In this document: positions 31,746 to 62,130 of the stretch, piece after piece
Layout: each line of letters starts with the position of its first letter
How positions within the stretch are numbered: the stretch's first letter is position 1
NCBI GenBank assembly: GCA_020444065.1
Contig: JAHLLQ010000006.1
Span: 248,001-312,000 of the forward strand
DNA: 64,000 nt
Source: a bacterium
GTDB lineage: Bacteria > Sumerlaeota > Sumerlaeia > SLMS01 > JAHLLQ01
Direction of reading: 5' to 3'
Translations under genes and position numbers: made by a program
The notes under the pieces: model-generated
Databases searched by the model: none
Seen by the model: only the letters and a program-made list of their open reading frames with translations
What the model was told of the DNA's origin: nothing

Positions 31746-32119
31746 GGATATGATGGAAATGCACGAGGGTGCTTGCTGCAAATGCGACGCACTTCGGGCT
31801 GGGCAACCGTGACAATGGGGAGCACGACGACGTAACCCGCCTACTTTCAACCACATGCATTCAGGCGCTCCTTCTGCGAAGTCGCGGAATGCGCATTGCC
31901 TTCTATAACGTGCGGTTGGAGGCAAACGCGCTGCATGAAGCCGGGTCGACAAATTCAGCGGAATCCCAAGCGATGAGCCTGGTGCGCGTTTCTTGCGTTC
32001 GTTCTAGTCCGGCTTGATTTGGGTGGTTACGGGGTAGGATCTCCATCACATCGCTGAGGATCGTGATCGGTGATCTGCCCCGATGCATACCAGAGCACAA
32101 GAGGATGAGATTCGACAAA
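31746..32119. other. Intergenic region before the metal-efflux operon
   Basis: About 370 bp without a supported gene. It must contain the promoter of the metal-efflux operon. A weak candidate is TTGATT, a 15-bp spacer and TAGGAT at about 32008-32034. I see no clear palindromic metal-regulator operator and no regulator gene. Confidence 0.45.
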
Positions 32120-42608: not shown

Positions 42609-45600
42609 CTATGGGACGATTTCACGTTCCGCGAGGAGTGCCCGCAGGTCGCTTGCATCGACCATCCCGTCGGTGTTGCGATCCAGGCTGATGGCGCTGG
42701 CCGATGGGTCCGATCTCCCGAGAAGGCAATCCAGGAAGAGTGCCACTCCTCCGTCCCCTCCCGGCTGAGGATTCACCTGAACCCAGGTCTCGGCGGATTC
42801 CCCGAAGACACCAGTGCCTTCGCGCCAGAGTTGCCACGCGGTTCGGTAGGAACCGGGAGTATCCGGCATTCGGGCGGAGAGGCGAATCATTCCATCCCGT
42901 CCACGCTCAACCATGTCCATTCCCCCCCACTCGCCAGCGGTAAAGCGTGTGAGCGGATCGACGGGATCCACAGGTCGAAAGGCAAACCCGTCATCCTTCG
43001 TCCACGGCAGGTTCGAGTCGTTGCGGACGTGCACCAGAATTTCCTGGTCGCTACCGGCATACACGAGGCCCGGGACTTCGATCCCGATGACGGCTCCGCC
43101 AAACCGGGGGACCTCAAACAAGTAGCATGAAGGAGAAGTCTCCGGCGTCCCTGTATTGTCGATGAGCGTGAGCTGCAGCTCGAATGCGACGGTCCCGTCG
43201 TCGGGCCAATTCCACGAGAAATCCGACACCCAGAGACCGTATGTAGGATCGATCCGGTTGAAGGAGAAATCGCCATAGCGCGTCCAGGTCTCCGTCCCTT
43301 GCGGGCGATAGTCGACCTCCAGCCGTTGCGGCTTCTCGGATGTAGAGCCGGCCAAGGCGGTGAGAGGCAAAGGGTTCTGGTCGAGCTCGATATCTTCATA
43401 TCCCACCAGACTCGAGTAGGGCCAGGGCGGGAAAAAGACCGCGGGGAATTCGAGAGTGAGTGAGTCGGCTGCTCCCCAGGAATCCGTTGCGCCGAGAGAC
43501 ACAAACTGCGGTTCGGAGGCGTAGCCGCCAATGTACTGAATGCGCAAGATTCCGGATGCCTCGTCGAGAGTCACGTCGAGGAGAGGGGAGTGCTCAACCG
43601 TCCAGCGGACCGGGTCTCCTTCGAGATCGACTGCGGCAAAGGGGACCTCAAGAGGCTGGGTCGCCCAGAGGGTCTCGTTGAAGTCGGCGGGTTCGGTAAT
43701 TTGCGGGGCCGTGTTACGATCCAGCAGGGTGAACTGCAGATCGGCGGCAAGCGGGTCGCTCCCTCCGGAACTCTGCATTCCGGAGTCGGCGTCTCGGAGA
43801 GTGGCCTCAGCCCCGAGGCCAATGCGGAGAGCTTCGGGAGGAACATTCCAGGCTGCCCGGTACTCTCCCGCAGCCTCGCCGGGTGCCAGGTCAACGCGGG
43901 CGATTTCGACTCCATCCTCGAGCCGTGAGACGAGGATTTCGCCCGAAAGCCCATTTCGCCCAGTGGCTTCTTGAACGGTGAACCGCATGACGCCCTGGGG
44001 AGCAACGAATCCTCCGCGCGACACCACAGGATCGGAAGCGAGGGCCAAGACAACGGGAGCGACCGGATCTGCGGTAGCCTCGACGGCGAGCACAAACGCC
44101 AGTTCGGGCTGGAGCGGGTCGTTTGCCTGAAAGATCGGCGAAGCGACGAGAAGCCCCGGCGCGCCGGCCAGGATGTCGAAATAGAGATCTCGAGATCGGC
44201 CTGCCGCGACCTGGATCGGGCCGGGACGACGTGGAACAAGCCACGAGGGGAGGGAGGTGGGATCGAGTGTTGCCTTCAGGACTCCCCCGCCGGCATTGGC
44301 CAGACGGAGCACGACCATGGAGCGTTGCCCCAGGGCGACCGGAAGAGGCAACTCCCACGCGGTGATCAATCTTGCGGCGGGTGCGGTGTTGTAGCCTGCC
44401 ACAGCGACTGGTCCCATCTCGTCACGGGCAGAGCGTGTCCCATCAGAAACCAGCACCTTGAGGCGCCCGCTTTCGGTTGCAGGCAATTGGGAACAGTCGA
44501 GTGTGTACGTGTTCGCCCCGTACTCGATTGGGAACGGTGGAGCCACTGGCATCCACGAGGCTCCCCCATCGGGGCTGAATTTGACCCAGGCGTAGAGTGC
44601 TTCTCCGCCGTCGGGGTCCCCTGCCTCGAACTGAATTGGGACGGAGCCGCTTAGGGCCTGCCCGGCAAGCGGAGCATTGAGGGCAACCATCGGAGCGGAC
44701 GGGGAAAATGCGATCGTATCGATCGTATCGTCCAAGGTCCCGTCAGCGAGCCGGATCTCGAAACTCGCGGAAGTGACGGCGGGGTCCCATGGGAATCGGA
44801 ACTGGGGAGAACCGGCCAGCCCCCAGTCGTCATCGCGATCGGGGTAGCCGGTCCAACCCGTAGGGACACGCGCTGTGCTTCCATTGGAAAGGGACACGCC
44901 GATGGACCGCGATCCAAGATCAACCTCGTCCGGAACCCACGGTTCATCGATGTCGACGAAGAAGGGCCAGACTTTGTCCATGTCGAAGTGCATGGTGGAC
45001 CACTGCTGACGTTGGAGAAAAACCCCTCCGACATACAGAACTTCCTGGGGGCTGCTGGCTTGGGAAAGCCGCCGACCGGTGCCAACGGTGGCTTCGTTCA
45101 GAATGCGTTCGTAAGTCTCCTCCGTAAGCCATGGTGAGGAGGCGCGGTCATACATGATCGTCTGGAAGTCCGGGTGGAGGGCTCCAGGGGTGTTGTAGAC
45201 CCGCGTGCCCTTGTCAGGATCGTACCCGTTGGCACTGGCTCCGTGATCGCCGTCGCCTTCCTCGTAGTGGTAGTTATCCAGGAACCCAAGGGTGTGGAAG
45301 TACTCGTGAAGGAGGTAGTGGGAGCGGGCAGTAACGCCATCGATCAGGACCACGTGCTCGTAGCGTGGTTCGGAGAGACCATCGGCACCGAAGATACCGG
45401 GGGCGGTTACGCCAACCACAAGGTCCGGCCGGGGGCTCATGGTCTCGCGAAGGCGCTCGAGGTCGGTGAAGTAAGAAAGAGTCTTCCACTTCCAGACAGC
45501 GCTCCATGGTTCGCTGGCCACGAGATCGGGACCGGAAGTGAATTCCACGGGAGCAGGGAAGAACTTCTGGAAGAAGTCGTTCATCGAACCCAGGGAAGCC

Positions 45601-47165
45601 GTGGAGGTCCATGATCCCAGCATCGTCTTGCTGCCGATGGTCGATGCGCCGGACGTCTGGAGACCCACGTAGTGGATGTGGAAGGGGCGATCGCGCATCG
45701 GGATGCGCTGCTCCTGGATCGTCGTACCGCCTATCCCGATGGAAAGTGGAATCTCGTCCCCGAGGTCATCGATCCAGTAGGCCTGGTGGGAATAGAGCTT
45801 AGGAACAGATTCGGGGAGGACGCCATAGAAGAACTCGTTCACGTTCCCCTTCAGGTGCTCGGCGTCTGTGAAATCATCCTGACACAATGCCTTGAGGCCA
45901 GTCAGGTCTGCGGCCTCTTCTCCGTTTTCGAGAATCCGCAGAGTGAAGTCCTCGAACCCCTCGTCCGCGTCGTCATAGGTGGTGGCGCTGTCGAGGATGC
46001 GGAACGTCGCGTGGTAATAGGCTGGGGCCTGAGAGTGCACCTGACTTTGGTGGACGCCATCGACGACTTGGGTGATTTCGGCTCCCATGGCGAGGCGGGG
46101 TGGCAACTTAAGGGTGACCTCTTCAGTAGCGGGGCCGCCGCCGTTAACATCAACTTCCACGAAGCCAGAAGCATCGGTCGTCACCGTCTGATCAACGGCC
46201 CCATCGATTTCGACGAAGGCGCCACCGACAGGACGGTCCTTCAGATCAACCGTGTGGATCTGGAGCTTGCCCTTGAAAGATCGCATATCCGGAACTCGAG
46301 CTCGGTTGTGCCCGTACCCCCCTTCGCCCGTGGAGCGATGCGCTGTAATGGCGGCGTAGGGTGGCGGGGCTGAGATCGGGTTGGCGGTCTCGATGACTTC
46401 GCCGCCTCCGCCGATATCCACGTAGGCTTCGCCTAACTCGTCGGTCGCAACCCAGGGGGAGATATAGTAAGTGGGACAATCATAGCTGGGGAGACAGGAA
46501 GCGTAAACGACCCGGACTTCGAGTCCCTCGTTGGGAATAGGAGCGTTGGCGTTGAACGGATCCGGAGCCACGGCCGTGATCTTGAATGTCAGGTTCAAAA
46601 TGTCGGTGGATGTCGCGATGTTGCTGATTTCGCTGTCTGTCTCATAAGGAAATGCAAGACTGAACGGGTTGGGATCGTCCCAGTCAGCCAAACGGTACTG
46701 CACGTAAACGTGTGAGACGCCGACATCAAAGCGGTGTGAGAAATACACTGAGCCGCTCTCCGGTCCGGAAGCGGAGTAGTAAGATGCAAAGCTGTCATCG
46801 AGTTCCCCGATACGCGCGTCGGATTCGGCGGCATAGGAGATGAAGGTCCCATTGTTCGACCTCACCTCATGGGTGATGACCTCAACATCAGAAGGGAGAA
46901 GATCCGGCGTGTCGTGGATCACGTTGACCATCATCTGCTTATGGCCAACAAAGAAATTCCCCTGCCGAATCAACGGTGAAGGAGCCTCGACCGCAAGAGT
47001 GACGGTGACCGGTTCGCCAGAGGTGGAGAAGTAGTCCGTCCCTGATTGTTCGATCCGCGTCACCGACTCCCAGCCGGGCTGAAGCCCGACAACGGGGTCC
47101 TCGGCAAACAGAGAAATGGTCGCGCAGCTAAGGATAGCAACGAGTAACAAGCCTGTTCTATTCAT
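42609..47165 (-). CDS. Large secreted metzincin-like protease with dockerin-like C-terminus
   Basis: From ATG 47165, preceded by GGGAGGGGAG, the product has 1,518 residues. A signal peptide (RTGLLLVAILSCATISLFA) is followed by beta-rich modules, one of carboxypeptidase-regulatory type (DRPVGGAFVEIDGAVDQTV). A zinc-protease motif HEYFHTLGFLD (HExxHxxGxxD, first His about residue 620) follows, with a Met-turn-like TIMYDRASS about 50 residues further, as in metzincins. Several Ig-like or cadherin-like modules follow (RLADGTLDDTID, ITEPADFNETLWATQPLE). The last 40 residues resemble one and a half dockerin EF-hands (LDRNTDGMVDASDLRALLA). It is likely an extracellular or surface protease. It is transcribed divergently from the NHL/cytochrome cluster. 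Confidence 0.85.
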   Translation of the reverse strand: MNRTGLLLVAILSCATISLFAEDPVVGLQPGWESVTRIEQSGTDYFSTSGEPVTVTLAVEAPSPLIRQGNFFVGHKQMMVNVIHDTPDLLPSDVEVITHEVRSNNGTFISYAAESDARIGELDDSFASYYSASGPESGSVYFSHRFDVGVSHVYVQYRLADWDDPNPFSLAFPYETDSEISNIATSTDILNLTFKITAVAPDPFNANAPIPNEGLEVRVVYASCLPSYDCPTYYISPWVATDELGEAYVDIGGGGEVIETANPISAPPPYAAITAHRSTGEGGYGHNRARVPDMRSFKGKLQIHTVDLKDRPVGGAFVEIDGAVDQTVTTDASGFVEVDVNGGGPATEEVTLKLPPRLAMGAEITQVVDGVHQSQVHSQAPAYYHATFRILDSATTYDDADEGFEDFTLRILENGEEAADLTGLKALCQDDFTDAEHLKGNVNEFFYGVLPESVPKLYSHQAYWIDDLGDEIPLSIGIGGTTIQEQRIPMRDRPFHIHYVGLQTSGASTIGSKTMLGSWTSTASLGSMNDFFQKFFPAPVEFTSGPDLVASEPWSAVWKWKTLSYFTDLERLRETMSPRPDLVVGVTAPGIFGADGLSEPRYEHVVLIDGVTARSHYLLHEYFHTLGFLDNYHYEEGDGDHGASANGYDPDKGTRVYNTPGALHPDFQTIMYDRASSPWLTEETYERILNEATVGTGRRLSQASSPQEVLYVGGVFLQRQQWSTMHFDMDKVWPFFVDIDEPWVPDEVDLGSRSIGVSLSNGSTARVPTGWTGYPDRDDDWGLAGSPQFRFPWDPAVTSASFEIRLADGTLDDTIDTIAFSPSAPMVALNAPLAGQALSGSVPIQFEAGDPDGGEALYAWVKFSPDGGASWMPVAPPFPIEYGANTYTLDCSQLPATESGRLKVLVSDGTRSARDEMGPVAVAGYNTAPAARLITAWELPLPVALGQRSMVVLRLANAGGGVLKATLDPTSLPSWLVPRRPGPIQVAAGRSRDLYFDILAGAPGLLVASPIFQANDPLQPELAFVLAVEATADPVAPVVLALASDPVVSRGGFVAPQGVMRFTVQEATGRNGLSGEILVSRLEDGVEIARVDLAPGEAAGEYRAAWNVPPEALRIGLGAEATLRDADSGMQSSGGSDPLAADLQFTLLDRNTAPQITEPADFNETLWATQPLEVPFAAVDLEGDPVRWTVEHSPLLDVTLDEASGILRIQYIGGYASEPQFVSLGATDSWGAADSLTLEFPAVFFPPWPYSSLVGYEDIELDQNPLPLTALAGSTSEKPQRLEVDYRPQGTETWTRYGDFSFNRIDPTYGLWVSDFSWNWPDDGTVAFELQLTLIDNTGTPETSPSCYLFEVPRFGGAVIGIEVPGLVYAGSDQEILVHVRNDSNLPWTKDDGFAFRPVDPVDPLTRFTAGEWGGMDMVERGRDGMIRLSARMPDTPGSYRTAWQLWREGTGVFGESAETWVQVNPQPGGDGGVALFLDCLLGRSDPSASAISLDRNTDGMVDASDLRALLAEREIVP

Positions 47166-47762
47166 CCGGGACTCCCCTCCCATTAGATCGAGAGGATTCT
47201 GACGACAGAAGGTTTATCCCGTCAACTGCAAGCAATACCGGCAATCCTGGTGGAATTCTTAAATGTCGCCCGACTGATCTTCATACAGCTCGGATACTTC
47301 CGAGGTGATCGGGAGGGATGCGCCCTCCCGAACTCGAGGTGCTCTGGCATCCCTTTCAGGACACATGAGACCTGCAAAATCATTGCAGAGATACGAAGGA
47401 CGCCAAAAGGACGGCTGTGGCTCGTTCGCCCTTTCTCTCCCATGCTGGTTACTCACAACGCCTCCCAGGGCGAATTGGGCTGCGTGGACGTCTGAGATTG
47501 CTATGCCGGATAGGACTTCGTTGGGAGGGTGCACATGCCCTCTTTGGACTTCATTACAAGATGGCCATTTGGCGAGTTTCACCACGCTGCGAATGTGGCC
47601 CTGATCCCACTGTGCCAACATAGTCACGGTTGAATTCATTATTGACTTCACCCCCAACGAACCTCCAGAACCTCTAGAAATGCCATCCTCGGTGATGGAC
47701 TAAACCCTCTAGATATCAGCCAGCGAGAGGACGTTGGCGGAGGGATACGAGGTGAGAGAACA
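47166..47762. other. Long divergent intergenic region upstream of the cytochrome cluster
   Basis: About 600 bp with no supported gene. It must hold the promoters of the protease and of the NHL/cytochrome operon. It contains a perfect 8-bp hairpin (CGGGAGGG-atgcg-CCCTCCCG, 47310-47330) close to a CCCTTTCAGGAC motif reminiscent of the CCCTTTCAGGGC element in the 30-kb repeat array. A minus-strand open frame at 47259-47657 has no ribosome binding site or recognisable domain and is not annotated. Confidence 0.55.
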
Positions 47763-48731
47763 ATGAGACGATCAAAGGTCTTGTCTGGTTGGACAGTTGC
47801 ATTAAGTCTACTTGTCTTGATTGCAGGTACCCAGGCGGTGAGTGGTGTAACAATCGAGTACCCGATGCGAACGATTCTGACTGACACGAGTTCGCCCGCA
47901 AGGCTGGCGCTCGATAGTTCGCAGAATCTCTACATCACAGATCCTTGGGGAACACGAGTCCTTGTCTATGATTCGACGGGGTCTGCAGTCACCCAGTTCA
48001 CACCATCTCAGACCGCGGCTCCGCTCGGAATCGCCATTTGGGCGGACGGGAGTTTTGCGCTCTCGGACGCTATGACGGGTTCGGTCGACTTGTACGATGC
48101 CGGGCAGAACTACGTCGGCTCGCTCGGAGCGGGCGATGGGGAGTTTGGCCTTCCGTGCGACCTGGAGATCGATCGCTCAACTGGCCATCTCTACGTGGTT
48201 GATTCGGCGAGCGCTCAGATCAGCGAGTACGATTCCACCGGAAGCTTCATTGGTTCGTTCGGAGCCTCTGGGACAGGTCCCAGCGAATTCATCAAACCGA
48301 CCGGCATCTCCATCAGCGAAGACGGAACTCGGCTGTATGTAGCCGATCAGGCGAACGGACGCGTTCAGGTCTTCGATTCCAACAAGACGTATCTTCGCGA
48401 GTTCGGTTCGATGGGTTCGCTGCCGGGGCAATTCGTCAGAGTTCAAGGAATCGCTGCAAGCACGAGCGGGTTCGTTTGCGCATCCGATTCATTCTTGAAT
48501 TCTGTGCAACTCGTCGATTCCTCCGACGGGGCTTGGCAAACCGACTTCGGAGAGATGGGGCTGCTGCCAGGAGACGGGTTCCTGCAAGCCGTCGATGCCG
48601 AACTGGACGAGACCAACGGCCTCCTGTACGTCGCTTCGCACAATACGCTCGCCGTCGAGGTCTTTCAGTCCGCCGGCGTGATTCCGACAGAAAGCGCTGT
48701 GCCTGACTGGTACATTCTGGAACAACCATAG
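47763..48731 (+). CDS. Secreted NHL-repeat beta-propeller protein
   Basis: The 322-residue product has an N-terminal signal sequence (VALSLLVLIAGTQAVSG) and about five or six NHL-type blades, for example LALDSSQNLYITDPWGTRVLVYD, EIDRSTGHLYVVDSASAQ and RLYVADQANGRVQVFD. NHL propellers bind proteins or other polymers outside the cytoplasm. GAGGTGAGAG precedes ATG 47763. It opens the NHL - cytochrome - NHL - cytochrome series and is clearly related to the second NHL protein at 52348, though it lacks that protein's N-terminal Ig-like domain. A structural or docking role for the following cytochrome is inferred from context only. Confidence 0.88.
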   Translation: MRRSKVLSGWTVALSLLVLIAGTQAVSGVTIEYPMRTILTDTSSPARLALDSSQNLYITDPWGTRVLVYDSTGSAVTQFTPSQTAAPLGIAIWADGSFALSDAMTGSVDLYDAGQNYVGSLGAGDGEFGLPCDLEIDRSTGHLYVVDSASAQISEYDSTGSFIGSFGASGTGPSEFIKPTGISISEDGTRLYVADQANGRVQVFDSNKTYLREFGSMGSLPGQFVRVQGIAASTSGFVCASDSFLNSVQLVDSSDGAWQTDFGEMGLLPGDGFLQAVDAELDETNGLLYVASHNTLAVEVFQSAGVIPTESAVPDWYILEQP

Positions 48732-48812
48732 TCCATCGAGAAACCTCAGGGGTGGGGATCGCGCAAGATCGATGGATGATGAAACTCACTATTCGCGCCA
48801 GGGAGTAATACA

Positions 48813-51800
48813 ATGATTCGCCATTTCCGGATCACGCTTCTCATTTCTGCACTTTCCATTCTCTGCGGTCTCGCTCTTGGGGCCGACGCCCCACACGATC
48901 AAACACAGGGCATCGATTGCGACTCCTGCCATACGATCCCATTGAATGCTTTGGCATTGATAACGACACCGACAGGCGGTCCCAGTCTTTGCCTGAGTTG
49001 CCACACGGTAGGCAGTGTTCCGTACGACATGGCACTGCAGTCCGAGAGCCAGGCGATCCCTGGTATCTCGGGTTACTCCCATCGCTGGGACTCGAATCTG
49101 CTGCAGTATGTTCACGTTCTGACTCCGGCCGGTGAAACCGGTTCGGTCGCACTCACCGGAGACTATGCGGAAGCGACGAGCTACACGCTGAGTGCCATGA
49201 TCACATCAGGCGGCGCGGTTGGAGTCGCCCAGTTCGCCTGGGCTGACAACTGGGGGAATTCCGGAACCGATACCGTTCAGTCCAGCGTTGCCGTTGGTCA
49301 GGGGCTTTCGCTGCTGTTCGAAGATCATCCCAGTACGACATCGTTTCCTCTGGACATGCGCTTTGAGGCCTTCGCCCTCCCGCTCGAAGTCGATACGCCG
49401 GCGATCGCAGATGCTTTGTCTCACGATATCGTTGTGTGCAACACTTGTCACGATCAGCACGCAAACACGTTCCCTCCATTCCTTCGCGTAGACAACTCGA
49501 GCGACGTTTTATGCGCGTCCTGTCACCCCGATCGTTCAATGGGAACCTGGGCGGACGATCCGATCAATAACGTTGGAAACCACCCGACCGGGGTTCTGAT
49601 GCCCTCGGTGTCCTGGTATGCAACGTCGATCGCTCCGCTCGAGCTCGAGGACCACGGCACAACTGCCGATGCGTCCGATGATACGGTACAATGTCTCTCC
49701 TGCCACTCCGCCCATCATGGCGACAGTAACACGAATGCAGATCCGTCGATGCTCGGCGAAGGCGATGGGAATCTGCTCCGAATGGCGAACGATGCGACCC
49801 TCTGCAAGACGTGCCATCTGTACGAGGATCACAGCGGACTTACGTGCTCGAATTGCCACGAACCGCACGGAGCGAGCAACAAGCGCCTCGTCCGCGACTG
49901 GCTGAATGGCCAGCCGGCTACCTACCAGTCGGCGGATGACTTCCTGAGTGGATCGCCGGACTACGATGGCGTGTGCGAGCGCTGCCACACGGCAACTGCT
50001 TATCATCAGGACAACGCGGGCGGCGATCATTCGCACTACGCGACGACCGATTGCATGCAGTGCCATTCTCACGTCACTGGGTTCGTGCCTCAGATGGTCG
50101 ATTGCCTGTCATGTCACCGCAATGAGCTCAATGTGACAGCCGATGGGATCGCGACGCGGTCCATCAGTGAAGATTTCGAGAATGAAGGTGGGCATCATCC
50201 CTTCACGTATGATCGCTCGGGAGATCTTTCCGATCCACAGAACAACAACTGCCTGATCTGCCACCTGGAGGATTCCTACGATAATCCGCTGCATGGCGAT
50301 GAGACTGTCGATCTGGATCTGGATCCGGATGGTTCTGGAGATCAGGAATGGCAAACGTATCCTGGCTCGCGTCACTCCTGGTGCGTCGATTGTCATGACG
50401 GTGACAATCCCAACCCGGCTTACCGTTTGTCCGGTCTCATTGCTTCCGACAAGTCCGACATGGCTACTGTCTCCAGTCACCGTGACGACTACCCGAATTC
50501 GGGTGCGGTGTTTGGCGGGCTTTGCGATTCCTGCCACGATGATGGGCATCGCGTCCGCGTTCGCTTCTATTCGCCGATGTACGGTGGCGGGCACGAAGAA
50601 GAAACCTGCTATGGATGCCACGGTGGGTTTGCCAATGTGAGCGTGAACGAAGGCACGACACGCTACATGGAGAATATGAAGGTCGCCTTTGTCGGCACCG
50701 GTGCGGTCCATCCGCGTTCACAACACATGGATCCTTACAAGGAGATTGGCGATGGCGCTGTCGTCTGCAGAAACTGCCACGATCCCCATCGATTGGATCA
50801 CGACACGAACCTTCTCTGCGATCCGGACGACCGGTCAACGTCATGGGGAGGAGATGTCGACAACGCATGGTGTCTGACTTGCCATGATGGCACGCAAGCG
50901 GACGCACCGCTTCACCTCGACATCGATGTCACCGGAGTGGACTGCGCGTCGTGCCACCTGGCTCACGCCTCGACGAATAAGAATCTCCTGCTGATCGACG
51001 AACTCTCGACGTACACGTTGTCACTGACACCGGATCCGGCTTCTGTGCCGGTGAACTCATTCCAACAGTTCCAGCCGGTCATCTCGCCGTCGGCCTACTT
51101 CCTATCGCCAGGTGGTTTGCAGCGCCAGGCGGATTGGGGACTCGAAGGCCTGACTGGCGGAAGCGCGGGCCAGCGTTTCGACTTCGATGCCAACATCCCG
51201 TTCGACCGAACGGAGGGCTACGATCCATCCGGCTGGGGACTAATCAACGTCACCGATGACGGGACCGTCTCGGGCGGGCCAAGCCTCGTGACTGACCTGA
51301 ATGTCTTCGTCGATGTTCCGCATCACTACCGCGGAGACCTTGAGGTCTGGCTGAGAAATCTGACGACTGGCGAGGAAGCTCAGATCGTCCAGTCCAATTG
51401 GAATGATGGAACCGATAACCTGTACAAGATCTACGATAGCGAATCGCCGAATGCCCCGAACACCGATGTGACAGAGCTTCCCGGAAAGACCGGCACTGGC
51501 ATCTTGCTCGGTTACATCAACCGCGATGGGTACACCGGCCCGAACAATCTGGAATACACGATTACGATCACTGCCGAAGGCGACATGGGAACAGCGCTCT
51601 TCGACTGGTCCGACAACCAGGGCGGTTCCGCAACGGACGTGGTGACATCTCTCACCACCCCATTGCAATACGGCGCCATGGCGGGATTCTATCACCTGCA
51701 CGCCTATTACGGTGGTGTGTCGCCGCAGTTCAAGGTCGGCGACTCGTGGACCTACAAGCCGATGGCGTTCTGGAATACGGCGCCGGATTCACTGACGGTC

Positions 51801-52322
51801 TTCAACGATCGCAACTCGAACGGCGATTGGCAGATCGAGGTCCATGACACGTGGCCGTCCGACAATCCGACCGATCCTGCGTCGCCGTCGTTCTGCTACT
51901 TCCGATCCTGGGCACTTCTCTTCAATTCGGGCCTGATCGGTACGATCGATGAACAGGGTCTCTTCAAGGGACTGTTCGCCGGCACCGGACGCGTCCAGGC
52001 CACGCTCCATCATGGTCGAATCTGGCCGATCCAGAGTGGACTCTCGGACTTCGTCTTTGAAGATCCGCTGCCGATCTCGGCAACCTCCGACGTCACAGTG
52101 ACAAGCACTCGAGCCGCGACTTCCGACAACGCATCGGTTTCACAATCGGTGTCGGAGACTCACAGGCAAATCACCCGCCCATTCGACAGGGGCGAAGTAG
52201 AGATGGAACGCCGAGCAACATGGGCAGAAGAGACAAAACGAAACCTTGCTGCAACCGGACTGACGCCACACGCACCTGAGCTTCTGCAAACGGTCAGTTG
52301 CGCCAGTTGCCACAAGCACTGA
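48813..52322 (+). CDS. Secreted 18-heme c-type cytochrome with split P-domain
   Basis: The 1,169-residue product has a Sec signal (HFRITLLISALSILCGLALG) and eighteen CxxCH c-heme sites. Seventeen lie between residues 36 and about 715 (CDSCH, CLSCH, CNTCH onward to CASCH at 711); the eighteenth (CASCHKH) sits seven residues from the C-terminus. Between them, about residues 826-1040 form a proprotein-convertase P-domain (DLNVFVDVPHHYRGDLEVWL ... NGDWQIEVHDTW), interrupted around 900-993 by a module (EYTITITAEGDMGTALFDWS) of which a similar copy occurs near residues 120-190. GGGAGTAA precedes ATG 48813. Many His residues outside the motifs could be distal ligands. Likely a surface or periplasmic electron carrier. 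Confidence 0.92.
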   Translation: MIRHFRITLLISALSILCGLALGADAPHDQTQGIDCDSCHTIPLNALALITTPTGGPSLCLSCHTVGSVPYDMALQSESQAIPGISGYSHRWDSNLLQYVHVLTPAGETGSVALTGDYAEATSYTLSAMITSGGAVGVAQFAWADNWGNSGTDTVQSSVAVGQGLSLLFEDHPSTTSFPLDMRFEAFALPLEVDTPAIADALSHDIVVCNTCHDQHANTFPPFLRVDNSSDVLCASCHPDRSMGTWADDPINNVGNHPTGVLMPSVSWYATSIAPLELEDHGTTADASDDTVQCLSCHSAHHGDSNTNADPSMLGEGDGNLLRMANDATLCKTCHLYEDHSGLTCSNCHEPHGASNKRLVRDWLNGQPATYQSADDFLSGSPDYDGVCERCHTATAYHQDNAGGDHSHYATTDCMQCHSHVTGFVPQMVDCLSCHRNELNVTADGIATRSISEDFENEGGHHPFTYDRSGDLSDPQNNNCLICHLEDSYDNPLHGDETVDLDLDPDGSGDQEWQTYPGSRHSWCVDCHDGDNPNPAYRLSGLIASDKSDMATVSSHRDDYPNSGAVFGGLCDSCHDDGHRVRVRFYSPMYGGGHEEETCYGCHGGFANVSVNEGTTRYMENMKVAFVGTGAVHPRSQHMDPYKEIGDGAVVCRNCHDPHRLDHDTNLLCDPDDRSTSWGGDVDNAWCLTCHDGTQADAPLHLDIDVTGVDCASCHLAHASTNKNLLLIDELSTYTLSLTPDPASVPVNSFQQFQPVISPSAYFLSPGGLQRQADWGLEGLTGGSAGQRFDFDANIPFDRTEGYDPSGWGLINVTDDGTVSGGPSLVTDLNVFVDVPHHYRGDLEVWLRNLTTGEEAQIVQSNWNDGTDNLYKIYDSESPNAPNTDVTELPGKTGTGILLGYINRDGYTGPNNLEYTITITAEGDMGTALFDWSDNQGGSATDVVTSLTTPLQYGAMAGFYHLHAYYGGVSPQFKVGDSWTYKPMAFWNTAPDSLTVFNDRNSNGDWQIEVHDTWPSDNPTDPASPSFCYFRSWALLFNSGLIGTIDEQGLFKGLFAGTGRVQATLHHGRIWPIQSGLSDFVFEDPLPISATSDVTVTSTRAATSDNASVSQSVSETHRQITRPFDRGEVEMERRATWAEETKRNLAATGLTPHAPELLQTVSCASCHKH

Positions 52323-52347
52323 TGCAAGCGAATCGAGGGAACAGAGG

Positions 52348-53520
52348 ATGAGAATCACTGCACTCGTGGTGGGATGCCTCTTGGCTGGCGCCGGGACTTG
52401 TTCCGCCGCCAACCAACCACCGAAGATCGAGGGATTTGTTGTCACGCCTGCCGTCTGGAGTGCCGGCGACGAGGTTCAAGTTCGTTGCCGCGCGACCGAT
52501 CCGGAAGGGACGGACTTGACCTTCAGTTGGACAGCAGCCGACGGGACGATTCTCGAGGCCGAGCCTGGGGCCGACCGCATTCGTTGGGCTCTACCGGGCG
52601 AATCCGGGAACTTCATGGTGAAGGTCCAGATCGCGGATCGCTCGGGGAAGATGACGAACGCCGAGTTCCTTCTTCCAGTCGGACCGATTGCCGCACACGC
52701 GGCACTCGGCGGCATCGGCTTTGCCCCGGCGCGCATTGCGGTCACCGCGGACGAGACGCTCTGGGTAACCGATCCGATCGGAAACCGGGTCGCCCAATTC
52801 TCCAAGGGCAGCCTCAAGCTGGCCGAATTTCCGACGGGTCCTCAGCCCGTGGGACTGGCAGTGCTGGATAATGGAACGGTTGTTGTCGGTGAAGACGGCC
52901 TCGATCGAATCGCTCTCTATTCGCCCGATGGAACCTTCATCGACACACTCGGCAGCGGCATCGGAGAGATCGGACGCCCCACGGCGATCGCGGTGGATAA
53001 CCAGTCGGGACGAATCTACGCCATCGACTCGGAATCCGCTCGGGTACGCGTCTTCACAACAAATGGAGATCCCGCAACGTCTTGGGGCGGGCACAGCCTC
53101 TTCGAGTATCCGGTCGACGTTGCCGTCAATCCGAATGCCGGCGAGGTTTATGTCGCCGATCAGCAGAAGCTTGAGATCTTCGCCTTCAGCCCGAGCGGAA
53201 CGCTCTTGCGCCGATTCGGAACCGCCGGATATGCGCCGGGACAATTCGGACGCATCCAGGCACTGGAAGTTGATGGCCAGGGGCAGATCCTTGTTCTGGA
53301 TTCCTACCAGAACCACATCCAGTTGCTGACTCCGACCGGAGATCACATCACAACGTTCGGCTACTTCGGGAACTGGCGTGGCAGCCTGGCAAACCCAATC
53401 GACCTGGGCGTCATTCCATCGGAACGCGTCTATGTGACATCCCCCGGAACCCAGACAATCCAGAGCTATCGATATTGGACATCAAGTCGCCTGTCCGGCG
53501 ACGCGTGGACATTTGAATGA
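52348..53520 (+). CDS. Secreted Ig-like plus NHL-repeat beta-propeller protein
   Basis: The 390-residue product has a signal peptide (MRITALVVGCLLAGAGTCSA), a PKD/Ig-like domain at about 25-110 (ATDPEGTDLTFSWTAADGT, FMVKVQIADRSGKM), and about six NHL blades (IAVTADETLWVTDPIGNRVAQF, AIAVDNQSGRIYAIDSESARVRVF, AVNPNAGEVYVADQQKLEIF). It is a longer relative of the NHL protein at 47763. It begins 26 bp after the 18-heme cytochrome, with AGAGG directly before the ATG, and its stop overlaps the next cytochrome's ATG (ATGA), so the genes form one transcription and translation unit. A partner role for the following cytochrome is inferred. Confidence 0.9.
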   Translation: MRITALVVGCLLAGAGTCSAANQPPKIEGFVVTPAVWSAGDEVQVRCRATDPEGTDLTFSWTAADGTILEAEPGADRIRWALPGESGNFMVKVQIADRSGKMTNAEFLLPVGPIAAHAALGGIGFAPARIAVTADETLWVTDPIGNRVAQFSKGSLKLAEFPTGPQPVGLAVLDNGTVVVGEDGLDRIALYSPDGTFIDTLGSGIGEIGRPTAIAVDNQSGRIYAIDSESARVRVFTTNGDPATSWGGHSLFEYPVDVAVNPNAGEVYVADQQKLEIFAFSPSGTLLRRFGTAGYAPGQFGRIQALEVDGQGQILVLDSYQNHIQLLTPTGDHITTFGYFGNWRGSLANPIDLGVIPSERVYVTSPGTQTIQSYRYWTSSRLSGDAWTFE

Positions 53521-56500
53521 TGCGAAAACTTGTTATCGTCTTCTCAGCCCTTTTGGTTCTCACCCTCCCGCAATGTCTCTATGCGCAGGCGGCACCGCAT
53601 AACGTCGGATGCGCGGCCTGTCACCGCCAGACGTTGCAACCGTCCGCCGCCGGGACCCTAGCAACGGGGAACGCAGGGCTCTGCATCTCCTGTCACAATC
53701 CGACAGCAGTCGGTGGCGCGGTTTCTGTGCAAGCATCGCAGGCAGCCGAACCGGGCCAGTCGGGATCTTCTCACGCGTGGAATGTCGCGCCGATCAACGA
53801 GGAACTCGACACGCTCGCTCCGCAGATTGGAGCTGTCAGCGGTGCATTGCTTGATGGAATGATCGTCTGCAGCACTTGCCACGATCAACATTCGCATGAC
53901 TCCGGCGAGCCATTTCTGCGCGCTTCGAATGATAATGACGAGCTGTGCCTCGACTGCCATCGTGCGCGAGACCTGGGCCGGTGGGTTGACGATCCCGCCG
54001 CCAACATCGGCAGCCATCCCGTGCGCGTCTCTATCGATCCCACCAATCAAGACATGCACCCGCCAGCCGATGGCGGCTACTACTTGCCATTGAAGGAAGA
54101 GGGGATTGTCTGCAGCACATGCCACTCGGTTCACAGAGGCTACTCGGATGAGACGCTGTGGTTCCACGCGACGGGCGGAGATGCAGAGAGAACTTCCGCC
54201 GTCGTCGATGGAGCCGGATGGACAACGGATACTCTTGTCGGTCGGGAGGCCACGTTTATCTCCAGTGGTGAGAACGACCGGGAGATTCGATCCATCATCG
54301 CGAACGATTCCGACACGCTCTGGTGGAATCTCCCGCTTCCGGTTGCGGTCGCCCCAGGCGATGGCATTGCTCTGGCTCAGCCAGGCGAGGGCGACGGGTA
54401 TCTTCTGCGCGCCCCTAACGATGAAACTCTCTGTCAGGCCTGCCATTTGTATGAAGGACACCCGACGGGCGAACGGTTCAGTTGTCGAGACTGCCACGAA
54501 CCACACGATACGACGAATATCCTTCTCGTTGCCGACGTGATCAACGGGCACGCAGTCGACTATTCCAGCAAGACTCCGCCCGACTTCATTCATGGCGCGC
54601 CCGATTACGACGGCGTTTGCGAGACTTGCCACACAAACACCCGCTACCATCGCAACAACTCCACGGGCAGCCACGATCACAACAATGGAACGGCCTGTAC
54701 CGACTGCCATCTGCACTCTGAAGGATTCAAGGCAGAGTGCGGCACTTGCCACGCGGCAACGCCGGAAACACTCACGACCGGTTCGCATCCGATGCACTTC
54801 GCGGATAGCACTGGACCGGGGATCGCGACCTGTTCCGCGTGCCATGGCGAAGGAGCCGACACAGCGTCTCATGCAGGCCACAACAACGGCGTGGTGAACT
54901 TCAATGGCGTTGCCACCGAGTCGCTTGCCCAGACTTCCGCCTGTAATACCTGCCACAGTCCATCAGGGTTCTTCGACGGCGTAAACGATTCGAACGTCGG
55001 CGCGAAGGCCCTGTGGGCAACCGGCGCCTACTCCTCCCCCGGCGTGCTTTCCGCATCCGCAACCATGTGGTGCGAAGGATGTCACGATGACAACCCGCAA
55101 ACGGTCGAGAATGAATCGTCGCTTGTGGATGGCGTATCTGCGCCGTCGCGGCTTGGCGACAACACAACGTTCGGATTCCTGGTCACCGGGCACGGTCGTT
55201 CCGGCTCGTCATATCCGGCCGAATCCTGGCAAGCCGAGAGCGATGCTGGGAATCCGCCTGGCGCATTGGACTGCACCGCGTGTCACGATGCATCGGCACC
55301 GCACTTCGACGGACAGCCCGGGAGCGTTGATCGACTTCGCAATGGGTTTGCGCCGGATCAGAACAACGATTCCTGCACGCAATGTCACAAGGAAGGCGAA
55401 GCCGCTTGGGGGCCGCCGGAGTACTTCGTCGATTCCGTCGGGTACGAGGCGTCCGAGCACGGTCGATTCCTTTGCACCGCCTGCCACGATGTCCACGGCG
55501 ACTCCGGAACGGGAGCGGCCATGACAACCAGCGTGGAAGAGGAACTCTGCGCACGATGCCACAACGATGTCGTTCAGGCATTCGGTGGCCTAAGCCATCA
55601 TGATATCGATGATGCCGAGCAGGCGGTGAACGGCTCGCGCATCGAATGCACGATGTGCCACAACCCGCACATCGCCAGTGAAACCAACCCACTGATTTCC
55701 TTGGATGACCCCACGAGCGGCTGGACTGCCGACACGCGCGGTTTCTGCCTGGTTTGTCACGATGGCGATCCGCCATCCGGCGTGGTTTACCCCGCCCAGG
55801 CCCCGGGGGCCAGTTGGGATCAGAGCGGCTACGAAGATCATCCGCACGACAACCCACAGTATTCCTGCGACGATTGCCATGGTCCGCATGGATCGACGAA
55901 TCTCCTGCTCGTCAGGCCCGTGGTGAACGGCCGATCGGTTGTATTCACGAGCCGCGAGGCCGGCGGATTCACGAGTGGCGATCCTGACTACAACGGCATC
56001 TGCGAAGTCTGTCACACGCAGACGGCCTATCATCAGAACAACCCAGCAGGCGATCACACACACAACACCCAGGCTCCTTGCACAGCCTGTCACGCACACG
56101 AGCAGGAATTCACGGCGTCCTGCGGAAGCTGTCACGACGCCACGCCGGAGACGCTGAACACCGGCTCGCATGCGACTCACTTCGGGACTGAAATCGGCCC
56201 AGGCATTCAGTCCTGCGACGAGTGCCATGGCAATGGCGCGCAGTTCGGAATGCACGCCGGACACAACAATGGAACCGTGAACTTCCTTGAAGGTGCTCAG
56301 GCGGGCCTGACGAGTACGGCCGCTTGCGATTCCTGCCACAGTCCGGACGGAATCAGCGATGGCGTCAGTGAAGCCAAGGGCGCATGGGCAACCGGCGTGT
56401 ACCTGGCTCCTGGAACGCTTCATCCGGCCCACGCCCGTTGGTGTCAGAGCTGCCACGACGACGATCCGGCAACAGCCGCGACGAATGAATCCGCAGTCAT

Positions 56501-57710
56501 CGGAGGAGTCTACGCTCCTCCGGTCTACGGCGATTCCCAGACGTACGGTTATTATGTGACGGGACACGGCCGAAAGGATACGCGATTCCCCACGATGTCC
56601 TGGCAGTCCGAAGGAGCTAACGGAAATCCGGCGGCAAACATGGCCTGCAGTTGGTGCCACGATCTGACCGCCAAGCACATCGACGGTTCGGCCGGCACAG
56701 AGTTGCGCTTCAAGCCCGGGTTTGCTCCCGACCAGGACAACACGGGCTGCAACCAGTGCCATCGCGAAGGAGGCGCGGGCAACAGCCTGCCCACCTACTA
56801 CACGCACTCGGCCGCTTACGAAGACTCTGCCCACGGCGGACTTCTTTGCACCGCCTGCCACGATCCTCACGGTCAGGGCGGTCCCGGTACCGCGATGTCA
56901 CCGGAGATTGAGGAAGCTCTGTGCGCCGAATGTCACCAGAATGAGATGAACGAATTCGGCATGACCAACCATCACGACATTGATGATGCGGAACAAGCTA
57001 CCAACGGTTCGCGCGTCGAATGCACGATGTGCCACAATCCCCACAACGGAACAAAGGGCGCCAGCCTGGCGAACCCGGACAATCCGACGCTGCCTTGGGG
57101 CGACGCCGGCATGCGCGAGTTCTGTCTCGCCTGTCACGATGCCCAGGCGCCGGATGCCGTGGAATTCCCGGCGACATCGCCCGGAACCGGATGGGATCAG
57201 ACAGCCTTCATTGGAACACGCCACGACGTGACCTTGGGCGGCGACTGCACTCTCTGTCACAACGCTCATGGTTCAGATTCGCTGGCGACGCTGCGGGCCA
57301 ACTACGCGGTGGCCGACTACACGAGTTCGTCCACTTCGGCCTACGCCCTGTGCTTCACGTGCCACGACTCTCAACAGATCCTGAATGGTGATGATGCGTT
57401 CCGCGAATACCACAAGAAGCACATCATTGAAGAGCGATCGCCGTGCATCGCGTGTCACAATGCGCATGCCCCGTATGATGCGAACGAGAGTGGACTGATT
57501 TACTTCGAATACGGCCTGAATCATGGGTTCAATATCTCGCTCACGACCGGCGGAACCACCTATACCCCATCAAGCGCCTTCCTCGATACAGGAGACGATC
57601 GCGGGCGCTGCTACCTGCGCTGCCACGGCGAAGGCCACAATGGAGAAAGCTACACGGGCTATCGAGTCACGACGGTAGATTGCCTGCAATGCCACCAGAC
57701 GCAGCCGTAG
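53517..57710 (+). CDS. Giant secreted multiheme cytochrome, 36 CxxCH plus one CxxxCH
   Basis: The 1,397-residue product begins with a Sec signal (VIVFSALLVLTLPQCLYAQ) and carries 36 CxxCH sites, the first at residue 32 and the last at 1389, plus one CYLRCH (CxxxCH) at 1365. Residues 30-190 parallel the first cytochrome (CSTCHDQHSHD, CLDCHRARDLGRWVDDP). Sites 8-20 (from residue 368) and 21-33 (from residue 829) form two homologous 13-heme modules, offset by 461 residues, sharing for example GSRIECTMCHNPH/GSRVECTMCHNPH and CTACHDVHG/CTACHDPHG. It overlaps the preceding NHL gene (ATGA; a second ATG follows at 53520). The protein is probably exported and matured by cytochrome c biogenesis, and may serve extracellular electron transfer. 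Confidence 0.93.
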   Translation: MMRKLVIVFSALLVLTLPQCLYAQAAPHNVGCAACHRQTLQPSAAGTLATGNAGLCISCHNPTAVGGAVSVQASQAAEPGQSGSSHAWNVAPINEELDTLAPQIGAVSGALLDGMIVCSTCHDQHSHDSGEPFLRASNDNDELCLDCHRARDLGRWVDDPAANIGSHPVRVSIDPTNQDMHPPADGGYYLPLKEEGIVCSTCHSVHRGYSDETLWFHATGGDAERTSAVVDGAGWTTDTLVGREATFISSGENDREIRSIIANDSDTLWWNLPLPVAVAPGDGIALAQPGEGDGYLLRAPNDETLCQACHLYEGHPTGERFSCRDCHEPHDTTNILLVADVINGHAVDYSSKTPPDFIHGAPDYDGVCETCHTNTRYHRNNSTGSHDHNNGTACTDCHLHSEGFKAECGTCHAATPETLTTGSHPMHFADSTGPGIATCSACHGEGADTASHAGHNNGVVNFNGVATESLAQTSACNTCHSPSGFFDGVNDSNVGAKALWATGAYSSPGVLSASATMWCEGCHDDNPQTVENESSLVDGVSAPSRLGDNTTFGFLVTGHGRSGSSYPAESWQAESDAGNPPGALDCTACHDASAPHFDGQPGSVDRLRNGFAPDQNNDSCTQCHKEGEAAWGPPEYFVDSVGYEASEHGRFLCTACHDVHGDSGTGAAMTTSVEEELCARCHNDVVQAFGGLSHHDIDDAEQAVNGSRIECTMCHNPHIASETNPLISLDDPTSGWTADTRGFCLVCHDGDPPSGVVYPAQAPGASWDQSGYEDHPHDNPQYSCDDCHGPHGSTNLLLVRPVVNGRSVVFTSREAGGFTSGDPDYNGICEVCHTQTAYHQNNPAGDHTHNTQAPCTACHAHEQEFTASCGSCHDATPETLNTGSHATHFGTEIGPGIQSCDECHGNGAQFGMHAGHNNGTVNFLEGAQAGLTSTAACDSCHSPDGISDGVSEAKGAWATGVYLAPGTLHPAHARWCQSCHDDDPATAATNESAVIGGVYAPPVYGDSQTYGYYVTGHGRKDTRFPTMSWQSEGANGNPAANMACSWCHDLTAKHIDGSAGTELRFKPGFAPDQDNTGCNQCHREGGAGNSLPTYYTHSAAYEDSAHGGLLCTACHDPHGQGGPGTAMSPEIEEALCAECHQNEMNEFGMTNHHDIDDAEQATNGSRVECTMCHNPHNGTKGASLANPDNPTLPWGDAGMREFCLACHDAQAPDAVEFPATSPGTGWDQTAFIGTRHDVTLGGDCTLCHNAHGSDSLATLRANYAVADYTSSSTSAYALCFTCHDSQQILNGDDAFREYHKKHIIEERSPCIACHNAHAPYDANESGLIYFEYGLNHGFNISLTTGGTTYTPSSAFLDTGDDRGRCYLRCHGEGHNGESYTGYRVTTVDCLQCHQTQP

Positions 57711-60697: not shown

Positions 60698-62083
60698 ATG
60701 AAGCGTCTTTCGATTGCCTTGTGGGCACTTATTATCGTGCTTGGGCTTGGCGATGTCGCCAATGCGTCCGGCGTATTCAACTATCAGGGCCATCTAAACA
60801 GAGATGGGCACTCCTTCACCGGCACGGCGGACTTCTATTTCGCGATCTACCGCAAAGATGGATCCACAGACACATTCCTGTGGGTGAACGATGATGGCGA
60901 TCTCTCAGTCCTTCCGCCCTCCTCCGGCGTCCCCGTGGATGTCGATGAGGGGCGCTTCTCGCTGGAGATCGGCGATACGTCCCTCCCGAATATGTCAGCC
61001 CTTCCTGCTGCCATCTTTGAAGATGACGCCCAACTCTTCATGCGTGTGTGGGTCGATGCCGGCGATGGAGTCCAACAGCTCTCGCCGGATAAGCGAGTTC
61101 ATTTGGGTCCTGGATTCGGCTATGGAGATGAAGACGTCCTGACGATCTACGTCGATGGGATTTCGGGAGATGACTTGAACTCGGGTCTACGGCCAAACCG
61201 CGCCAAAAAGACCATCCAGGGTGGCATCGATGCATTGCCGCCGGTGATACACGGCGAAGCAATCGTGCAAATCGCCGATGGGATTTATGAGGAGGGAGTT
61301 GCAATTCACAGCGTGACGCTGACTGGGAATCTCGCCTCGCTGACCATTCAGAAGAATCCCGGAACGCCGGGAGATGTCGTCTTGCAGCCGGGAAGTTCGG
61401 GAGAAACAACGGGACTCGACATCGCGGGGACCGATCGACCCATCACTATCACCGGCTTGACAGTCCAGGGCTTCAGTTTCGCCGGCGTTCAGATTTCCAG
61501 ATCCTCTGTCGATCTGGAAGACTGCACCATCAAGGACAACCTGGGAGCTACTGGATGGGGAATCTACGCGCTGCGAGGTGCTTCGGCTTCCTTGAAGAAC
61601 TGTACTCTGGACAACAATCACATGGGCATTTACGCCGATCACTTCTGCGATATCGGGCTCTACGACACCACCATCTCCAACTCCGAAGACACCGGTGTTT
61701 ATGCCCGATTCTCGACCGTGTTGCACACGAATACGGCGACGATTCAGAACTCCGGGGGTGATGGAATCTATCTTTGGATGAATTCCAATGCGGACCTTCG
61801 GTACACGACCCTCCAGGGCAATGCGGGAGCTGGGCTGCGTGGTACGAAGCAGTCCTGTGCGATGTTGATCGAAGTTGATTCCATTCAAAACGGAATTGGC
61901 ATCTGGTCCGATCGGGGCAGTTATCTCTTTCTCGGAAATGACTCCCATTCGATCTCGAACAACACACTGGGCCTGCGAGCCATTCACCGCAGCACGATTG
62001 AATATTATGGAGGATCGGTCACCATCAGCGGAAACGGAACCAACTCTGAAGAAGATTCAACCAGCGTGATTCTGGTAAACTGA
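60698..62083 (+). CDS. Secreted right-handed beta-helix (PbH1) protein, copy 1
   Basis: The 461-residue product has a signal peptide (ALWALIIVLGLGDVANA), an N-terminal beta-sandwich-like domain opening with VFNYQGHLNRDGHSFTGTAD (residues 25-145), and a parallel beta-helix (about 150-455) with repeated coils such as VDLEDCTIKDN, ASLKNCTLDNNHMGIY and ISNSEDTGVY. The opening motif is common in exported beta-rich proteins. The helix resembles NosD/pectate-lyase-type folds, but no catalytic Asp set is visible, so binding or structural roles are as likely as polysaccharide cleavage. GGGAGAGA precedes the ATG. It is a tandem paralogue of the next gene. Confidence 0.88.
   Translation: MKRLSIALWALIIVLGLGDVANASGVFNYQGHLNRDGHSFTGTADFYFAIYRKDGSTDTFLWVNDDGDLSVLPPSSGVPVDVDEGRFSLEIGDTSLPNMSALPAAIFEDDAQLFMRVWVDAGDGVQQLSPDKRVHLGPGFGYGDEDVLTIYVDGISGDDLNSGLRPNRAKKTIQGGIDALPPVIHGEAIVQIADGIYEEGVAIHSVTLTGNLASLTIQKNPGTPGDVVLQPGSSGETTGLDIAGTDRPITITGLTVQGFSFAGVQISRSSVDLEDCTIKDNLGATGWGIYALRGASASLKNCTLDNNHMGIYADHFCDIGLYDTTISNSEDTGVYARFSTVLHTNTATIQNSGGDGIYLWMNSNADLRYTTLQGNAGAGLRGTKQSCAMLIEVDSIQNGIGIWSDRGSYLFLGNDSHSISNNTLGLRAIHRSTIEYYGGSVTISGNGTNSEEDSTSVILVN
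60955..61245 (+). repeat. Near-identical 291-bp tract, copy 1 (partner 62391-62681)
   Basis: This stretch matches 62391-62681 at 290 of 291 bases (one A/G difference at 61207/62643). Identity stops abruptly on both sides although the proteins remain homologous. It encodes the end of the N-terminal domain and the start of the beta-helix. Confidence 0.95.
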
Positions 62084-62130
62084 CTCTGCCTCATGTTACC
62101 AGACGATCAATCCTGTAGGGAGACTTTGAC

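What the first reader, a model, noticed from the sequence alone, without database searches (positions are those of the whole stretch)
47763..57710. Duplicated NHL-cytochrome, NHL-cytochrome operon: candidate undescribed surface electron-transfer unit
The order NHL propeller, large cytochrome, NHL propeller, larger cytochrome, with an ATGA overlap in the second pair, suggests two tandem pairs. The two NHL proteins are related and the two cytochromes share their N-terminal portions. A propeller may organise or anchor each heme wire. No porin, quinol oxidase or known conduit partner is present, so it does not fit the standard porin-cytochrome plan.
Basis: partly seen in the sequence, partly recalled or inferred. 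Interest (0 to 1): 0.82.

Follow-up and report, generated by a model that had tools for sequence, protein, structure and literature searches.

The report
Paired propeller and giant heme-wire proteins
A bacterium of the little-known phylum Sumerlaeota has two back-to-back gene pairs, each coding for a wheel-shaped propeller protein followed by a very large iron-heme protein that probably carries electrons out of the cell; the same pairing recurs, and is sometimes fused into one protein, in many unrelated bacteria, so the propeller looks like a dedicated partner of these heme wires.

Summary
In detail: NHL1 (322 aa), CYT1 (1169 aa, 18 hemes), NHL2 (390 aa), CYT2 (1397 aa, 36 CxxCH plus one CxxxCH), co-directional, with an ATGA overlap in the second pair and Sec-type leaders by eye. 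The pairing is not chance. A propeller-only profile run blind over 386 genomes gave 46 hits; 42 of 45 evaluable ones are followed by a multiheme cytochrome gene. Two Phycisphaerales species encode propeller and 18-heme cytochrome as one protein. NHL1 and NHL2 fall in a propeller group (support 88/99) tied to giant cytochromes, separate from the often lipoprotein-type propellers paired with a conserved 12-heme cytochrome whose N-terminus resembles nanowire cytochrome OmcE. CYT1 and CYT2 begin with an OmcE-related module; CYT2 also ends like the 12-heme family, so it reads as a stretched version with two 12-heme repeats. Best explanation: a secreted propeller binds and helps build or anchor a long heme wire for extracellular electron transfer. 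Physical partnership is likely; acceptor and exact propeller role are inferred. NHL genes beside EET cytochromes are already in print (Uet, D. ferrophilus, Geoalkalibacter), so this is a new variant of a known kind. A recent tandem duplication is not supported.

The parts
47763..48731 (+). NHL1: secreted NHL beta-propeller, 322 aa, leader by eye, no lipobox
48813..52322 (+). CYT1: 18-heme c-type cytochrome, 1169 aa; 17 hemes in residues 1-740, the last at the C-terminus
48813..49742 (+). CYT1 N-module (OmcE-related hemes 1-5) carrying an inserted beta segment at about residues 95-200
   Evidence: alignment A3; OmcE match of the A3 profile
50973..52298 (+). CYT1 heme-poor C-terminal region (residues about 721-1162), weak P-domain hit, contains a segment resembling the inserted beta segment; role unknown
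   Evidence: structure model failed
52348..53520 (+). NHL2: PKD-like N-terminal domain plus six-bladed NHL propeller (residues about 126-378), no accepted lipobox
53517..53520 (+). ATGA overlap of NHL2 stop and CYT2 start (translational coupling likely)
53517..57710 (+). CYT2: 37-heme c-type cytochrome (36 CxxCH + 1 CxxxCH), 1397 aa
53517..54161 (+). CYT2 N-module, 5 hemes, OmcE-related
54537..55796 (+). CYT2 12-heme repeat 1 (residues 341-760)
   Evidence: 52% identical to repeat 2
55920..57173 (+). CYT2 12-heme repeat 2 (residues 802-1219)
56814..57707 (+). CYT2 C-terminal region homologous to the C-terminal half of the widespread 12-heme cytochrome, including the CxxxCH motif; overlaps the end of repeat 2
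   Evidence: hhalign probability 99.9, E 7.4e-35; 42% identity to a Planctomycetota NHL-linked cytochrome

Best explanation
The locus is most likely one transcription unit of two propeller-plus-cytochrome pairs. Each propeller and its cytochrome are exported by Sec; hemes are attached in the periplasm. The propeller, which has no heme and almost no metal-ligand residues, acts as a dedicated structural partner: it docks on the cytochrome (most likely near its OmcE-related N-module), helping it fold, reach the outer surface, or dock to a mineral, a partner cell or the next cytochrome. The cytochromes are long heme wires (18 and 37 hemes; if stacked as in OmcE, up to roughly 15 and 31 nm) that carry respiratory electrons outward, fed by the conduit and periplasmic cytochromes encoded elsewhere in the genome. 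Shown: gene order, overlap, heme counts, propeller fold, conserved adjacency, natural fusions, homology of both ends of CYT2 to the 12-heme family and of the N-module to OmcE. Inferred: direct binding, surface location, direction of electron flow, acceptor.
For: Blind propeller profile: 40 of 45 evaluable hits have a cytochrome ORF of at least 4 hemes within 600 nt downstream, and 2 more have one after a longer NHL gene. Control: the 11-row group of MHC-free propellers in the same tree has none; its own-genome member sits with vWA and MoxR genes. 61 of 80 named loci of the 12-heme cytochrome from over ten phyla have NHL directly upstream, often with a 4-base overlap. Fusions: two Phycisphaerales ORFs join an NHL propeller (about 48-331) to an 18-heme cytochrome starting with the N-module; a third genome joins PKD-NHL and the N-module in one frame. 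NHL1, NHL2 and the partners of other giant cytochromes share a propeller group, 88/99. N-module profile hits OmcE at 3.4e-8. Enough His for bis-His ligation (58 for 18 hemes, 92 for 37).
Against: No relative of CYT1 at E<=1e-20 in the 40 phylum genomes searched other than the window's own and no near relative of CYT2 in the family, so the quartet itself is lineage-specific. Some N-module giant cytochromes have no NHL neighbour (L262, L269, L271, L272). In D. ferrophilus, deleting cytochromes from clusters that contain NHL genes did not impair Fe(III) oxide reduction (PMC9769857). No expression, localisation or binding data; no complex model could be made. The propeller group support (88/99) is below the tree tool's star threshold.
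Confidence: 0.6

Rival explanations
1. The propeller is a transient periplasmic assembly or export chaperone for the cytochrome, not part of the finished wire.
For: Propeller gene comes first and is often translationally coupled; no heme and few possible metal ligands in it; partners range from 4 to 38 hemes.
Against: Single-chain fusions in two Phycisphaerales species favour a permanent partner; propeller group tracks cytochrome type.
Confidence: 0.25
2. The cytochromes store electrons (capacitor) or bridge periplasmic redox enzymes and never reach the surface; the propeller anchors them to the envelope.
For: No porin in the operon, no lipobox in the propellers and no surface-sorting signal noticed in the quartet.
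Against: Relatives carry domains typical of extracellular proteins: LamG and Big in L196, beta-helix in L233; OmcE-related N-module.
Confidence: 0.15
3. Recent tandem duplication of one NHL-cytochrome pair, with redundant copies.
For: Same order twice; homologous parts.
Against: NHL1/NHL2 are 30% identical, not resolved as sisters, with about equally close paralogs elsewhere; CYT1 lacks the CYT2 repeat pair and C-terminus and has its own beta regions.
Confidence: 0.1
4. Chance neighbourhood in a genome rich in multiheme genes.
For: The genome has about ten multiheme genes.
Against: Adjacency conserved across phyla and tested with propellers alone.
Confidence: 0.01

Closest known systems
Uet pathway (UetHI NHL proteins, UetJ undecaheme cytochrome, UetA, UetC porin) of Gallionella / Ca. 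Tenderia, PMC10734462
   Same: NHL-repeat genes with a multiheme cytochrome of 11 hemes; likely counterpart of the 12-heme family (11 CxxCH + 1 CxxxCH) found here (inference, Uet sequences not compared)
   Different: Quartet has no porin, tetraheme or triheme genes; its cytochromes have 18 and 37 hemes and its propellers belong to another group than the partners of the 12-heme family and lack lipoboxes
OmcE cytochrome nanowire (PDB 7TFS)
   Same: N-module of CYT1/CYT2 is homologous in sequence
   Different: OmcE is a small tetraheme polymer subunit; CYT1/CYT2 are giant, multi-domain proteins, and polymerisation is untested
Desulfovibrio ferrophilus clusters around DFE_0448-0451 and DFE_0461-0465, PMC9769857
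   Same: Multiheme cytochrome genes clustered with NHL genes
   Different: Cytochrome families not compared; deletions there had no Fe(III) oxide phenotype
Geoalkalibacter ferrihydriticus OmcE/MtoA locus with two NHL proteins, PMC12016550
   Same: NHL proteins beside an OmcE-type cytochrome; authors suggest mineral binding
   Different: Contains MtoA-type conduit genes; not described as an alternating NHL-cytochrome operon
Porin-cytochrome conduits (Mtr, Pcc)
   Same: Multiheme electron carriers of the outer envelope
   Different: No barrel in the quartet
MoxR-vWA-beta-propeller systems
   Same: NHL propeller in a conserved operon (own genome C3:43-50 kb)
   Different: No cytochromes; a separate propeller group

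Membership tests
Porin-cytochrome conduit (Mtr/Pcc) | Outer-membrane barrel encoded with the cytochromes | tested here: not met
   No barrel gene in 47763-57710; direct neighbours are a 1524-aa secreted protein and an ammonium transporter. A barrel-like protein (by eye, no Pfam hit) is at C1:703-705 kb
OmcA/MtrC or DmsE decaheme families | Score above NCBIfam cut-off | tested here: not met
   CYT2 decahem_SO 153 vs cut-off 192; decahem_SO1788 50 vs 209
OmcE-type nanowire subunit | Sequence homology to OmcE | tested here: met
   N-module profile, E 3.4e-8 to 7tfs, 5e-7 to 9yuq; CYT1 alone gives a weak match over 39 residues and CYT2 alone none
OmcE-type nanowire subunit | Small tetraheme subunit | tested here: not met
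   18 and 37 heme motifs
OmcE-type nanowire subunit | Helical polymer with inter-subunit His ligation | not testable with these tools
   Needs cryo-EM
Uet pathway | NHL plus undecaheme plus porin plus tetraheme and triheme genes | tested here: not met
   Quartet has only NHL and giant cytochromes
NHL propeller | NHL repeats and six-bladed fold | tested here: met
   Pfam; AF2 pLDDT mostly above 90 over the propeller of NHL2; TRIM3 TMt 0.85
NHL-multiheme cytochrome pair | NHL gene directly upstream of a multiheme gene, conserved | tested here: met

The most novel reading that the evidence does not exclude
Propellers of this group are permanent subunits of extracellular heme wires, so that propeller plus giant OmcE-derived cytochrome is a separate, unnamed class of electron-transfer apparatus, found across many phyla and built by stretching a 12-heme conduit cytochrome through repeat duplication.
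Probability: 0.3. Interest if true: 0.85.

Novelty: new variant of a known kind. Interest (0 to 1): 0.6.

Why it matters
NHL proteins appear repeatedly in lists of EET genes without an assigned role. A dedicated propeller group, naturally fused propeller-cytochrome proteins and an evolutionary link from OmcE-type cytochromes to 37-heme proteins make that role directly testable, and suggest extracellular electron transfer in Sumerlaeota.

Tried and rejected
The CYT1 C-terminal structure model from a single sequence failed, pLDDT 34, so that region stays unassigned. Horizontal transfer: composition of the quartet is the same as its surroundings (0.592 vs 0.588 GC), so no sign of recent arrival. 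Geobacter GSU2884-2887, recalled from memory as a possible parallel, could not be confirmed in the papers held. Tandem duplication rejected as a recent event. A search in the class of G052 added nothing because it holds one genome.

Full report
What is there. The window is G000:C6:248001-312000 of a 5.2 Mb genome in 14 contigs. Contigs of other genomes of the same class agree in length with named Candidatus Sumerlaeota (BRC1) records (5461, 12730 and 34929 bases: MVZB01000224.1, JAPLSS010000767.1, JAFGKF010000046.1), so the window is assigned to that phylum. Heme motifs number 18 in CYT1 and 36 CxxCH plus one CxxxCH in CYT2; the NHL proteins have none. Gaps are 81 and 25 bp, then ATGA. A tRNA-Arg on the other strand follows the operon. 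Leaders look Sec-type and none of the four has a convincing lipobox (by eye; for the propellers).

The propellers. Pfam, an AlphaFold2 model and a fold search agree on a six-bladed NHL propeller in NHL2, residues about 126-378, with a PKD-like domain in front that was modelled poorly. Very low Cys and His content argues against a redox or metalloenzyme role (inference).

The cytochromes. Both open with a module of five hemes alignable to four other proteins. As a profile it finds the OmcE nanowire protein 7tfs at 3.4e-8 and another multiheme cytochrome, 9yuq, at 5e-7. In CYT2 a 12-heme block is duplicated at 52% identity, and the C-terminal 298 residues match the C-terminal half of a 12-heme cytochrome family, CxxxCH included (hhalign 99.9%); its N-module matches the start of that family too (98.8%). 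CYT2 therefore reads as that family stretched in the middle. CYT1 instead has an inserted beta segment and a heme-poor C-terminal region containing a similar segment (alignment score 86 against a shuffled maximum of 52).

Same genome. A third pair (NHL then 15 hemes, same overlap) lies at C6:30.7-33.6 kb. A fourth (NHL then the 12-heme cytochrome) lies at C1:700-703 kb beside a barrel-like protein, with 13-, 11-, 5-, 4- and 16-heme cytochromes and a second NHL gene nearby. An NrfD/FeS protein with 9- and 13-heme cytochromes lies about 45 kb downstream of the quartet. These are candidate conduit and quinone-side partners; that they connect to the quartet is inference. In all, five of six NHL hits of the genome are directly followed by a multiheme gene.

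Conservation of the pairing. The 12-heme cytochrome of C1 matches OmcE over its first 205 residues at 6.5e-26 and is 47-62% identical within the class. Among 80 named loci of this family from more than ten phyla, 61 have NHL directly upstream, often overlapping by four bases; several of the others are cut by contig ends or by crude ORF calling. Searching with propellers alone over 386 genomes gave 46 hits at E<=1e-45 in 31 genomes; 40 of 45 evaluable hits have a cytochrome ORF directly downstream, and two more (L261, L264) have one after a longer NHL gene. The profile was built from cytochrome-linked propellers and some hits are those same proteins or near relatives, so the count is not fully independent, but the search itself used no cytochrome information. 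The MHC-free propeller group in the same tree has 0 of 11; its own-genome member sits with vWA and MoxR genes.

Fusions. L234 and L235 (Phycisphaerales SURF_32 and SJ659) each encode one protein of about 1125 aa with a propeller at about 48-331 and 18 heme motifs at about 406-1022, with nearly the same spacing, and the cytochrome part opens with the N-module. Two species share it, so an assembly error is unlikely. L101/L266 carries PKD-NHL and an N-module in one frame, though a hydrophobic stretch before the cytochrome leaves open a merged pair of genes.

Propeller groups. In a 90-row tree NHL1, NHL2, the C6 propeller and the partners of giant cytochromes in Calditrichota, Planctomycetota, Phycisphaerales (fusions), G125 and G346 form one 13-row group, support 88/99. 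Partners of the 12-heme cytochrome form another; many of those carry lipobox-like leaders (23 of 61 by a strict pattern, more by eye) whereas none of the 13 does by the same pattern. NHL1 and NHL2 are not resolved as sisters. A second giant-cytochrome propeller group (L097, L103, L265, L268) lies elsewhere in the tree, so the association arose or was kept more than once.

How specific the quartet is. CYT1 has no relative at E<=1e-20 among the 40 phylum genomes other than in its own; CYT2 has relatives at 1e-25 in only two of 386 genomes besides its own. One of them, G125, shows the alternating order 17-heme, NHL, 11-heme, NHL, so the plan recurs even where sequences are far apart.

Mechanism. 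Shown: order, overlap, heme load, fold, adjacency, fusion, homologies. Inferred: the propeller binds the cytochrome, both are outside or at the outer membrane, and electrons flow outward to an unknown acceptor. The wire length (15 and 31 nm) scales OmcE's 34 A rise per four hemes (PMC12954529) and is an upper bound.

Literature. NHL genes in EET clusters are reported for the Uet pathway (PMC10734462), D. ferrophilus (PMC9769857), Geoalkalibacter (PMC12016550) and Dethiobacter (PMC10376724), with suggestions of mineral binding or complex assembly only. No paper found in the library searched describes the pair as a unit or the fusions; subscription papers were not searchable.

Verdict. Real, conserved and functionally suggestive; a new variant of a known but unexplained association.

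Noticed in passing
window 32063-34201 and 34208-37684: CusB-like membrane-fusion protein with six heavy-metal-binding HMBD stretches beside an RND pump; the repeat number looks unusual.
   Followed up: no
window 107-8389: 2760-aa TPR protein.
   Followed up: no
window 42609-47183 (-): 1524-aa secreted protein next to the quartet on the opposite strand with a dockerin-like C-terminus (by eye).
   Followed up: no
window 60698-63522: A right-handed beta-helix (NosD-like) protein at 62131-63522; 60698-62083 looks similar by eye.
   Followed up: partly
L092 5464-12374 (C3:43-50 kb): NHL propeller, vWA/GATase1-like 984-aa protein and MoxR ATPase in a row; NHL next to a protein of about 980 aa is conserved in other Sumerlaeota.
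   Followed up: partly
L271 8727-16304, L272 4375-11655, L239 4428-11972: Single ORFs of about 2430-2530 aa with 38-43 heme motifs and no NHL neighbour seen, among the most heme-rich found here.
   Followed up: no
L234 8125-11502, L235 8483-11857: Natural propeller-cytochrome fusion proteins in Phycisphaerales.
   Followed up: yes
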